Shown one piece after another: positions 3,607 to 56,807 of a DNA stretch of 64,000 bases (its first letter is position 1; each line of letters starts with the position of its first letter). Source of the stretch: Paenibacillus brasilensis (GTDB lineage Bacteria > Bacillota > Bacilli > Paenibacillales > Paenibacillaceae); NCBI RefSeq assembly GCF_009363115.1, contig NZ_CP045298.1, positions 1,379,001 to 1,443,000 of the forward strand. Reading direction: 5' to 3'. Under the pieces are notes generated by a model that searched no databases, was not told where the DNA came from, and saw nothing but the letters and a program-made list of their open reading frames with translations. The translations under genes and the position numbers were made by a program.

Positions 3607-4188
3607 CTATTTACGCGCAAAAGGTTCAATATGCACTCCCTGCGGAAGCTTATGCGGATCTTCCGGGTTGATGCGGTCATAGAACATAATACCGTCCAAA
3701 TGGTCCATTTCATGCTGTACTACAATCGCTGCATAACCTTTGAAGGTCAATAGTTCCTGGGTTCCATCCGGCAAATAGGCCTTAACGCGAATTTTTTCAT
3801 AACGCGGAACATATCCGGCTATGTAACGATCCACTGACAAGCATCCTTCACCCTGTTCCAAATAAATCATGGATGTGGAGTGGCTGACCAGCTTCGGATT
3901 AAACAGCGCATACTCTATCGTTTGGTCTCCATCCTCATAATAGATAGCGCACATTCTTTTATTCAGACCTACCTGGTTAGCGGACAGCCCTACACCCGGG
4001 CGCAGCTCATAGCGGGTGGCCAGTTCTTCATTTTGGCTATTTTTCAGATAATCCAGCATCCATTGCATCTGTTGCAGGTCCTCTTCAGACAGCGGCAAGC
4101 ATACCGGATCAACCTTCGTACGCAAAATTGGTTCCCCTTCACGCACGATATCCTTGGTAAGAAGCATGTCTATAGATTGATTGCTCAT
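3607..4188 (-). CDS. def: Peptide deformylase (class 2)
   Basis: This 193-residue metalloenzyme removes the formyl group from the N-terminal methionine of new proteins. All three family motifs are visible: GVGLSANQ (family GxGLAAxQ, Ala replaced by Ser), EGCLS with the metal-binding Cys, and QHEMDHLDG, the HExxH helix supplying two His ligands and the catalytic Glu. The insert between motifs 1 and 2 and the length fit the Gram-positive type 2 form. The ATG at 4188 follows a weak GAGGC. It is monocistronic here, not next to fmt. A structured repeat lies about 160 bp upstream. Confidence 0.95.
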   Translation of the reverse strand: MSNQSIDMLLTKDIVREGEPILRTKVDPVCLPLSEEDLQQMQWMLDYLKNSQNEELATRYELRPGVGLSANQVGLNKRMCAIYYEDGDQTIEYALFNPKLVSHSTSMIYLEQGEGCLSVDRYIAGYVPRYEKIRVKAYLPDGTQELLTFKGYAAIVVQHEMDHLDGIMFYDRINPEDPHKLPQGVHIEPFARK

Positions 4189-4345: not shown

Positions 4346-4483
4346 GCGGTCGCTACGCGGACGGATCATTCTTCCGATTGCTGTTGCCCCCGGATTTCCC
4401 GATTAAAATTTTCAAGGTAGAACTCCGGGGGCAAAGGCAAACGCTGACGCTTCTTCAGAACGATTCCGCCCTCTCCGCTGCTG
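4346..4483. repeat. Interspersed structured repeat, copy A
   Basis: This ~140-bp element shares two strongly conserved blocks with 54563-54703: 4371-4388 (CTTCCGATTGCTGTTGCC) and 4427-4458 (GGGGCAAAGGC, one variable base, AACGCTGACGCTTCTTCAG). An inner stem pairs TTGCCCCCGGA with CTCCGGGGGCAA, and an outer stem pairs GGATCATTC with GAACGATTCC. The stems differ in sequence between copies but keep pairing, while the loops are conserved. Both copies stand upstream of a minus-strand gene in the same orientation. It is the only recognisable content of the gap 4189-4636. Confidence 0.75.
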
Positions 4484-54562: not shown

Positions 54563-54703
54563 TGGCGGCTCCGCGATCCATTTGATCTTCCGATCGCTGT
54601 TGCCTCTGAATTATTAGAATTGATGAACCCTTATAGAGTTAGAATTCAGGGGCAAAGGCGAACGCTGACGCTTCTTCAGATTCAAATGGACCGCTCCGCT
54701 GCT
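54563..54703. repeat. Interspersed structured repeat, copy B
   Basis: Partner of 4346-4483. Conserved blocks at 54587-54604 and 54649-54679. The outer stem pairs TCCATTTGA with TCAAATGGA; the inner stem pairs TTGCCTCTGAATT with AATTCAGGGGCAA. Stem sequences differ from copy A while pairing is kept. It lies upstream of the SPFH gene in the same relative orientation that copy A has to def. Confidence 0.75.
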
Positions 54704-54739
54704 GCCCACCTAAAATCAACACACTTTTAAAATGAGGAT

Positions 54740-55257
54740 CTTCATTTTTATTCGTTGTAGCAGGGTTAGTGACCCTTGCAGAGCATCCCTCCGGGGTGAA
54801 CGGCGGGGCCAAGCTTGAGGAAAAAGGAAGGTGCTGTCTGTCTCCGTGTTTCGAGGATGGGATTCATCAGCCCAACATCGACTGTGAATCCGTATCCCCG
54901 AAGCTGCGGGCCCTGTCGTCGCTTGCTCTTTCCGGTATCCGCTAGCCGCATAGCCATCGCCTCGGCATCTGTCATAGGGACCAGAAATGGGATGCTCTCA
55001 TCCAGGTCTTTTCATTGTTTTTATTCGACCATTCGAATACTCTACCAGAAGTCGCTTGGAAGGCGATTGGGAATCGAACCCTAATGTTGGTGGATACACA
55101 AGATTTACAGGATACCTGGCCCGATGAGGGCAGGCACTGCGGGACCTTTAGAAATCCTCACCTCGGTAATATCTTCCTGCATCAGCCTTCATCATTATTG
55201 CGCACAACCTCACTCACGAACATGGCGAAAGTATTACGACCCTATACAAAAACAAAA
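54740..55257. other. Unexplained 0.5-kb segment before the IS110 element
   Basis: No credible gene: short frames on both strands lack ribosome sites. It contains GTAGCAGGGTTAGTGACCC, GC-rich text on the minus strand (54766-54980) and, at ~55070, a tRNA T-arm-like GGGAATCGAACCC that lacks a matching acceptor stem. It may be the remains of another mobile element or of a tRNA-linked site. Confidence 0.3.
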
Positions 55258-55306
55258 AAAAGACACGGAAGAAGCTCTTTTGGCTCACTCCGTGTCGCTC
55301 TTTTTA
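55258..55306 (+). terminator. Orphan terminator
   Basis: GACACGGA pairs with TCCGTGTC, followed by GCTCTTTTT and preceded by eight As. No intact gene ends here, which supports the idea that the segment upstream is a remnant. Confidence 0.7.
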
Positions 55307-55394
55307 TAGCTACCTGTGTCAACAGAAAATAAAGTATTAGACGCCCATGCCGCTAACGCAGCACCAACAGATGATGAAAATGGTAGGTATGCGA

Positions 55395-55580
55395 TATAAT
55401 TTACTTACGGCTGGCGAAGGCAGGTCGGCAGTCAATGGTGCTTCGAGCCCGAGTATTAGACTGACCCTAACGACCAGGTGCACCACAGATTGTTGCTCCG
55501 AATTTGGAAGCACGCAGGATAGAATAACCATATGTGGTTGTTGCACCAGCCCCTTCAATCTTGCTGCCGTAAGGAGAAGG
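55395..55580 (+). ncRNA. Candidate IS110 bridge RNA
   Basis: A -10 box TATAAT (55395-55400) precedes ~180 nt of folded leader ending at the transposase ribosome site. First loop: TGGTGC (55436-55441) and GCACCA (55480-55485) close an internal loop with AGTATTAGACTG (55452-55463), identical to 12 nt of the reconstructed target across the core, and CCAG (55474-55477), complementary to CTGG just right of the core. Second loop: CAGGATAGA (55515-55523), identical to the element's right end, sits before the hairpin AACCA/TGGTT (55526-55539). A right donor guide is not clear. This is the layout of target- and donor-binding loops in IS110 bridge RNAs. Confidence 0.7.
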
Positions 55581-55586
55581 CTACGA

Positions 55587-56807
55587 ATGGACGTTGTTTA
55601 CAGTCATGTGTGCGGACTTGACGTTCATAAAAAGAACATCGTTGCCTGCACCATCACGCCTGAAGGTAAAGAAATCCGTACGTTTGGCACGATGACCGAC
55701 GATTTAATTTTGCTTGTAGATTGGCTCAAAGTCAAGGAATGCACTCATGTAGCGATGGAAAGCACTGGAGCATATTGGAAACCAATCTACAACCTGTTGG
55801 AGCTTGAGGAGATTGAGACTCTTGTTGTGAATGCCCAGCACATCAAGAATGTTCCGGGACGCAAGACTGACGTCAAAGACGCGGAATGGATTGCTGGATT
55901 GCTCCGGCATGGTCTATTGAAGGGTAGCTTTATCCCAAATCGCGAGCAAAGAGAGCTGAGGGAATTGATTCGCTACCGCCGTAGTCTCATCGAAGAGCGA
56001 GCTCGGGAAGTCAGCCGCATTCAAAAGGTGCTGGAAGGAGCAAACATCAAGCTTTCCTCGGTTGCCAGCAATGTGCTTGGGAAATCAGGACGTGCAATGA
56101 TTGAGGCGATGATTGCTGGCGAAACCGATCCTGAAGCTTTATCTGATCTTGCAAAACGAAAGTTGAAAAGCAAAAAAGCGGATTTGAAGCGAGCATTGAA
56201 CGGCTTAATGGGCCCTCATCAGAAACTGATGCTGGGAGCTCAGCTCCGTCACGTCGATTATTTGGACGAAGAGATTGGCAGGTTGGATGAGGAAATTAAA
56301 AAGCGCATGCTCCCTTTTGATGAAGACTTGGAACTGCTTGACACCATCCCAGGTGTGGCACGAAGAACAGCAGAGACTATTCTAGCCGAAATTGGCTCTA
56401 ATATGAATCAGTATCCTTCCGCCGCCCATTTATGTTCTTGGGCAGGGCTGTGTCCGGGTCAGAATGAAAGCGCCGGAAAACGATTGTCCGGCAAGACGCG
56501 AAAAGGAAATAAGAAACTCCGAAGTACGCTTGTAGAAGCTGCGAAGGCTGCGGCTAGAACAAAAGAAACGTATTTATCCAGCCAGTATCATCGGATTTCC
56601 GCGCGTCGGGGAGCTAACCGAGCGACGGTTGCAGTAGCACACAGTATATTGTCTATGGTTTACTATATCCTTAAGCGGAAACAACCCTACATCGAGCTAG
56701 GTCCAACCTACTACGAGGAACGAAAACGGGACGTGATCATCAAGCATTCCATTAAGAAACTGGAGTCATTAGGTGTATCAATTACTGTGAATACGGCAGC
56801 TTCCTGA
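55587..56807 (+). CDS. IS110-family transposase (RuvC-like DEDD recombinase)
   Basis: 406 residues from ATG 55587, ten bases after AAGGAG. The N-terminal DEDD domain (~res 8-160): Asp in [14 protein letters not shown], Glu in [13 protein letters not shown], Asp pair in [16 protein letters not shown] coiled-coil linker follows, then the Transposase_20 domain with [40 protein letters not shown] and the serine region. The frame stays open upstream to 55347, but that part is the RNA leader. It catalyses RNA-guided recombination with the leader transcript. Intact. Confidence 0.93.

What the first reader, a model, noticed from the sequence alone, without database searches (positions are those of the whole stretch)
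4346..4483. Structured interspersed repeat with compensatory stem changes (copy A)
Copies at 4346-4483 and 54563-54703 conserve the unpaired blocks CTTCCGAT(T/C)GCTGTTGCC and GGCAAAGGC(A/G)AACGCTGACG. The flanking stems have different sequences that still pair (TTGCCCCCGGA/CTCCGGGGGCAA against TTGCCTCTGAATT/AATTCAGGGGCAA). Conserved loops with covarying stems point to a selected RNA rather than passive DNA. Both lie upstream of a gene on the minus strand in the same orientation (def and the SPFH gene).
Basis: seen in the sequence. Interest (0 to 1): 0.65.

Follow-up and report, generated by a model that had tools for sequence, protein, structure and literature searches.

The report
Hairpin repeats scattered between Paenibacillus genes
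The two look-alike hairpins are two of about fifty copies in this genome of a palindromic, apparently once-mobile DNA repeat, found outside genes in many relatives of Paenibacillus; its folded shape is preserved while the paired letters change, but whether it works as an RNA is not shown.

Summary
In detail: copies A (core 4347-4483) and B (core 54563-54704) share unpaired blocks and have different but complementary stems. They belong to a large family: at least 51 places in this genome, 35 full-length, and matches in 234 of 296 genomes of the order but in 0 of 294 genomes outside the host family in a phylum-wide sample. Rfam has no match at its cut-offs.

Covariation is strong (22 of 39 pairs) but does not prove RNA selection. 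G-U counts give no consistent strand, and at several orthologous sites the terminal hairpin was replaced by one closer to another copy.

The elements look like MITEs: terminal inverted repeats on 17 of 207 copies, about 190 bp apart, one insertion flanked by a 5-6 bp repeat and absent from two relatives, and losses of hairpin modules. Copies A and B lack those ends. No copy of 179 lies in a called gene, and the element's 5' end tends to face the nearer gene. No transposase partner was found.

Verdict: a new MITE-like structured repeat; a transcript-level role is plausible, untested.

The parts
4347..4483 (+). copy A, core of the element (model positions 1-142)
   Evidence: cmsearch 129.3 bits
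4362..4372 (+). copy A, P1 5' arm CGGATCATTCT
   Evidence: sequence; covarying helix
4373..4383 (+). copy A, conserved 5' internal-loop strand TCCGATTGCTG (includes short inner helix)
4384..4394 (+). copy A, P2 5' arm TTGCCCCCGGA
4423..4434 (+). copy A, P2 3' arm CTCCGGGGGCAA
4435..4456 (+). copy A, conserved 3' internal-loop strand AGGCAAACGCTGACGCTTCTTC
4457..4468 (+). copy A, P1 3' arm AGAACGATTCCG
54563..54704 (+). copy B, core of the element
   Evidence: cmsearch 149 bits
54577..54588 (+). copy B, P1 5' arm TCCATTTGATCT
54600..54612 (+). copy B, P2 5' arm TTGCCTCTGAATT
54643..54655 (+). copy B, P2 3' arm AATTCAGGGGCAA
54678..54690 (+). copy B, P1 3' arm AGATTCAAATGGA
3607..4188 (-). neighbouring gene, peptide deformylase (def); not part of the element
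   Evidence: TIGR00079, PF01327
53388..54506 (-). neighbouring gene with Band_7/SPFH domain; not part of the element
   Evidence: PF01145; start taken at ATG 54506 behind GGAGTGATACC, conserved in four genomes; the longest ORF begins at 54581, inside the element

Best explanation
The two stretches are members of a family of non-autonomous, palindromic, MITE-like intergenic repeats that spread through the order of Paenibacillus long ago and are now mostly inherited in place. A unit with both ends is about 190 bp: an outer stem whose ends are terminal inverted repeats (TATAAGYTGAACT...) where still recognisable, then a 140-nt core made of hairpin P1 with hairpin P2 stacked on it through a conserved two-sided internal loop. 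Shown: the family, its pairing, its absence from called genes, one insertion, losses of modules, replacement of P2. Inferred: a transposase acting in trans once moved it by its ends; pairing is kept by a mixture of exchange between copies and selection for, or passive correction of, the palindrome; and copies just after stop codons or within operons become part of mRNAs, where the long hairpin alters mRNA stability or processing, as reported for ERIC and NEMIS. The orientation bias suggests that one strand is less tolerated in leaders and operons than the other.
For: Structure. Terminal repeats: both ends in 17 of 207 distinct copies, 0 in the reversed control; TIR pattern 20 against 4 control hits in this genome and 34 against 5 in G006, but 10 to 11, 13 to 6 and 10 to 7 in G001, G014, G015. 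Insertion: L046 site empty in G004 and G007, flanked in G000 by ATAGTT. Losses with G007 as third genome: core at L023 and P2 at L042 in G004. P2 replacement: at L040 and site B the hairpin is 0.89 and 0.88 identical to another copy, 0.66 to its ortholog. Outer flanks of 35 copies pair better than mismatched flank pairs (mean -21.0 against -13.4 kcal/mol). Placement: 0 of 179 in called genes; 5' end nearer a gene in 89 of 104 copies of relatives, 27 of 31 of them in this genome, and in 52 of 75 named copies.
Against: Copies A and B, and 167 of 207 copies in all, show neither terminal repeat by the test used; single ends occur in 23 copies but also in 16 controls. Only one clean insertion with a target repeat was found and its exact ends are ambiguous. 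No autonomous partner: no transposase in 18 stretches fetched around TIR matches of two genomes (the ORFs of 90 aa or more between distant TIR-like matches were a transporter, CbiC, a response regulator, one protein without a Pfam match and short overlapping frames), no Y1 transposase in this genome, no element within 1.5 kb of 30 Y1 loci. A merely parasitic MITE would not be expected to keep its internal loops across an order while its stems drift, so some function of the loops, cellular or in mobilisation, is likely and unexplained.
Confidence: 0.62

Rival explanations
1. A selected structured RNA acting in cis: the element is part of mRNA leaders, spacers and 3' ends and is bound or cut by a protein or ribosome through its conserved internal loops; copies were multiplied and retained for this.
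For: Loops conserved and stems covarying (the named set was fetched by a loop pattern and cannot show loop conservation); oriented placement at gene boundaries; copies upstream of purC and purS and other housekeeping genes in several species; tandem gaps of 350 bp or less hold 8 sense against 29 antisense copies, longer ones 55 against 56, p 0.004, orthologous sites not removed.
Against: Both strands are used next to genes. G-U excess contradicts itself between sets: leaving out the fixed T.G pair, 30 G-U to 103 A-C and 52 to 101; folded P2 hairpins, sense against antisense G-U, 126 to 63 and 89 to 92. Neighbouring genes have no common function that I can see. Copies lose P2 or the core at some sites without loss of the gene.
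Confidence: 0.22
2. A REP-like repeat mobilised as single-stranded hairpin by a RAYT or other Y1 transposase.
For: Palindromic, high copy, intergenic, often in opposed pairs as known for REPINs.
Against: No PF01797 match in this genome nor in G003, G004, G008, G015, G016, G023, which have 34 to 82 model matches each, 82 being the number scored; no element near any of the 30 Y1 loci fetched, of 32 match rows; several times the 20-40 bp of REPs; terminal inverted repeats on some copies.
Confidence: 0.05
3. A dispersed intrinsic transcription terminator, sense strand only.
For: Sense copies sit 0-73 nt after stop codons (17 of 35 in this genome); some outer stems have an A-tract before and a T-tract after.
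Against: T-runs behind sense tandem copies in 18 of 43 and 5 of 20, A-runs before them in 20 of 43 and 3 of 20, no clear strand preference; about half the copies have a gene start, not a stop, on their 5' side.
Confidence: 0.08
4. Chance similarity of two unrelated hairpins.
For: None.
Confidence: 0.001

Closest known systems
NEMIS/Correia, ERIC and RU elements (bacterial MITEs reviewed in PMC2229807; passages seen)
   Same: Units of about 100-200 bp, long stem-loops in the transcript; NEMIS with terminal inverted repeats and TA at the ends; for ERIC the review calls the orientation crucial for its effect on mRNA stability.
   Different: Here the interior is conserved as loops with freely varying paired stems, hairpin modules are lost and exchanged, and the host range is the order of Paenibacillus; no sequence relation to those families was tested.
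bcr1-bcr18 repeats of the Bacillus cereus group (PMC6542083, PMC3446304; passages seen)
   Same: Repeats of 100-400 bp, bcr1 with 39 copies per strain on average; bcr1-3 described as MITE-like; bcr10 and bcr18 as having conserved structures and being transcribed in 5' UTRs.
   Different: Their mobility is associated with a TTTAT motif and they are described as specific to the B. cereus group. None of 294 genomes outside the host family in a phylum-wide sample matches our model; whether that sample includes B. cereus is not known.
REP elements with RAYT transposases, REPINs (search listings and abstract beginnings only)
   Same: High-copy palindromes, opposed pairs.
   Different: Size, no RAYT.
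BOX and RUP repeats of Streptococcus pneumoniae (search listing only)
   Same: Small interspersed repeats of a Firmicute; the modular make-up of BOX is recalled, not read.
   Different: Host; sequences were not compared.

Membership tests
MITE | short (<600 bp), no ORF for a transposase | tested here: met
   188-197 bp between terminal repeats in 14 copies, 223-235 bp in three, too short for a transposase gene
MITE | terminal inverted repeats | tested here: inconclusive
   both ends in 17 of 207 copies (some of them orthologs of each other), one end in 23 (control 16), none in 167, window copies A and B among these; control both ends 0
MITE | target-site duplication on insertion | tested here: inconclusive
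   one site only, ATAGTT or TAGTT, empty in two relatives; the 17 copies with both ends show at most TA by eye
MITE | autonomous transposon with the same ends | tested here: not met
   none in 18 stretches around TIR matches in G000 and G006; not searched elsewhere. Hence MITE-like, not MITE
REP/RAYT | RAYT (Y1 family) gene in the genome, flanked by the repeat | tested here: not met
   0 PF01797 in G000; 0 elements at 30 Y1 loci
cis-regulatory RNA class | conserved structure with covariation | tested here: met
cis-regulatory RNA class | constant strand and position relative to one class of genes | tested here: not met
   both orientations, unrelated genes
cis-regulatory RNA class | transcription and effect on gene expression | not testable with these tools
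   no expression data
any Rfam family | match to a curated covariance model | tested here: not met
   none at gathering in the window; at E up to 1 five hits far below cut-off in seven loci, one of which (mir-9461, L003) overlaps a copy
bcr1 | sequence match and TTTAT-associated ends | not tested
   bcr1 sequence not at hand; its paper is not held

The most novel reading that the evidence does not exclude
An order-wide element whose unit of selection is a shape: two hairpins joined by an invariant internal loop, recognised as single-stranded nucleic acid (RNA or DNA) by a factor conserved in this order. The stems are exchangeable cassettes that copies swap with each other, and the element is kept with fixed polarity at gene boundaries because the folded transcript changes mRNA processing. 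It would be a structured mobile element domesticated, many times over, as a boundary signal.
Probability: 0.25. Interest if true: 0.75.

Novelty: new variant of a known kind. Interest (0 to 1): 0.5.

Why it matters
Small palindromic repeats shape many bacterial genomes, but most are known as sequences. This one is conserved as a structure across an order (matches in 234 of 296 sampled genomes), has no Rfam match, and shows module loss and replacement between sister species, so how such palindromes stay paired while changing can be studied directly. It also warns that covariation in a multi-copy palindrome is not by itself evidence for a functional RNA. If the oriented placement reflects an effect on transcripts, dozens of genes per genome, in some species those of purine synthesis, carry the same signal.

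Tried and rejected
RAYT/REP: rejected. Terminator: T-run and A-run counts gave no clear strand preference. Chromosomal strand: no obvious excess of either strand by eye on the list; not a formal test. Ancestral small form: copies without P2 have several different junctions and at L042 two of three genomes have P2, so those copies look like deletion products; at L045 only G007 lacks P2 and the direction is not settled. Autonomous parent: the orphan 5' blocks that I read (three of those) are decayed copies, and TIR matches lead to no transposase. RNA strand from G-U counts: sets disagree. Plasmids: two Paenibacillus cellulosilyticus records match, over 47% and 20% of the query; phages none. Literature: searches listed no paper on such a repeat in Paenibacillus; only the top rows of up to 520 papers were seen and only open-licence papers are held, so this is no proof that none exists. 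An extra 36-nt hairpin at the base of P2 was first read as swapped between copies; G006 has the same P2 without it at the L018 site (L176), so it may be an insertion or a loss there.

Genes were called with a simple codon-usage script. Before the counts, duplicates and copies under 115 nt were dropped, then copies lacking a called gene on either side (207 to 179). The 'rel' set holds orthologous copies, so its counts are not independent. The named loci (80 used of 118 found) came from an exact loop pattern. One search scored 150 of 1931 first-look candidates, so 51 is a lower bound; searches used stricter filters. Of 20 flank segments all were located in G004, one wrongly (L028/L218); 19 were located in G007. 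Parts of the output were cut; of the G007 comparisons I saw 13 of 19.

Full report
Observation. Copies A and B are real and alike. A shared 26-nt block occurs only at these two places in the window, none in 100 shuffles, and both stretches fold well below their shuffles on either strand. Rfam has no match in the window and only five hits far below cut-off in seven loci.

Family. A search of the whole genome with the 3' block, up to 3 mismatches, gave 17 places; 16 are copies, and L013 was dropped as a chance match. The 16 were aligned (A1). RNAalifold found 39 pairs, 23 with double changes. My slightly different structure has 22 of 39, 93.1% of cells paired against 77.5% in shuffles, and 34-51% when the partner is slid by one to three columns. 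The fold is a rod: P1 (about 12 pairs with one bulged T whose place differs between subfamilies, by eye), a large asymmetric internal loop, a short helix with an unvarying T.G pair, a G/A mismatch, P2 (15 pairs) and an apical loop. Outside the core the flanks of 35 copies pair too, on average -21.0 kcal/mol against -13.4 for mismatched flanks.

Numbers and spread. Model R1 gave 55 rows in the genome; four are opposite-strand shadows, leaving 51 places, 35 full-length with 80 bits or more. It matches 27 of 39 genomes, own included, among them all 24 of the genus, 234 of 296 genomes of the order in 32 of 48 genera, and 5 of 299 across the phylum, all five in the host's family. In the order it also reaches other families.

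History of sites. At site B, G000 and G006 share P1 but have different P2 stems, while G004 and G007 keep only the 5' half. Site A is shared by G000 and G004 only; its surroundings are rearranged in G006 and G007. Twenty further sites were looked up in G004: of 19 usable, 14 hold a whole element, two a partial one (L042, L043), two only the outer stem (L023, L038) and one nothing (L046). Nineteen were located in G007, 13 of them seen. L046 is an insertion in G000: both others have the uninterrupted sequence, and G000 has ATAGTT on both sides. At L023 G007 has the core, and at L042 it has P2, so G004 lost them. At L045 G007 alone lacks P2; direction open. At L040, L030, L047 and site B the P2 hairpin differs from its ortholog (identity 0.66, 0.67, 0.63, 0.66) and is closer to another copy (0.89, 0.81, 0.72, 0.88). 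L025 (0.51 against 0.52) is undecided. At L018 the best match (0.57) is the same site in G006. For site B the closest copy, L048, lies by its flanks at the place of the copy that faces site B in G006. So paired arms are sometimes replaced together.

Ends. Seventeen of 207 distinct copies carry TATAAGYTGAACT-like ends on both sides, 188-197 bp apart in 14 and 223-235 in three; the reversed control gives none. One-sided matches occur in 23 copies and in 16 controls, so single ends are weak evidence. As a genome-wide pattern these ends exceed the control in G000 (20 to 4) and G006 (34 to 5), less in G014 (13 to 6) and G015 (10 to 7), not in G001 (10 to 11). Copies A and B lack them; the link of their subfamily to the end-bearing ones rests on the common core.

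Placement. In this genome no full copy lies in a called gene. Seventeen of 35 follow a stop codon on their own strand by 0-73 nt; 18 have on their 5' side the start of a gene on the other strand. Over both sets 0 of 179 lie in called genes. The 5' end is nearer to a gene than the 3' end in 89 of 104 copies of relatives, 27 of 31 of these from this genome, and in 52 of 75 named copies. Tandem gaps of 350 bp or less hold 8 sense and 29 antisense copies, longer ones 55 and 56. Genes behind antisense copies include mnmE, mutL, purB, purC, purS, ligA, smpB and pheT: ordinary genes without a common theme.

RNA or DNA. In A1 nearly all changes that keep a pair are Watson-Crick to Watson-Crick: 97 cells changed on both sides, 2 on one side. 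G-U counts do not agree between sets: leaving out the fixed pair, 30 G-U to 103 A-C and 52 to 101, with some misaligned columns in both; by folding each P2 hairpin, 126 G-U sense against 63 antisense in one set and 89 against 92 in the other. I therefore do not claim a strand.

Interpretation. The least forced reading is a MITE-like palindrome related in kind to NEMIS, ERIC and bcr elements (passages of PMC2229807, PMC6542083 and PMC3446304). It is not a formal MITE here: no autonomous partner was found, terminal repeats are missing from most copies and the target repeat rests on one site. What does not fit a plain parasite is the conservation of the internal loop and the oriented placement; that is the part worth an experiment.

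Noticed in passing
window 55347-56807 (+): IS110-family transposase (PF01548, PF02371) downstream of copy B; no link to the element was seen.
   Followed up: partly
window about 54740-55000: Block beside copy B conserved in G000, G004, G006 and G007; no Rfam match up to E 1 in 54700-55360 and no tRNA in the window.
   Followed up: partly
L076-L095, e.g. G000:C1:1747011/1747403 and 3546335/3546822: Many copies form opposed pairs about 100-1600 bp apart with their 3' ends facing, by their flanks at corresponding places in several species.
   Followed up: partly
L093 (G004), L355 (G256), L273 (Paenibacillus zeisoli): Runs of three copies in a row, 185-187, 263 and 337/488 bp from start to start.
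   Followed up: no
L149, L151, L152, L209, L368, L376 and six named loci: Some copies carry an extra hairpin of about 36 nt (AGCTTTCCTACGGAAAGCTTT-like) at the 3' base of P2, present or absent at the same site between species.
   Followed up: partly
L036 (G000:C1:904414-904566): A copy with the GAACGC motif of the internal loop repeated three times; its G004 counterpart has it once.
   Followed up: no
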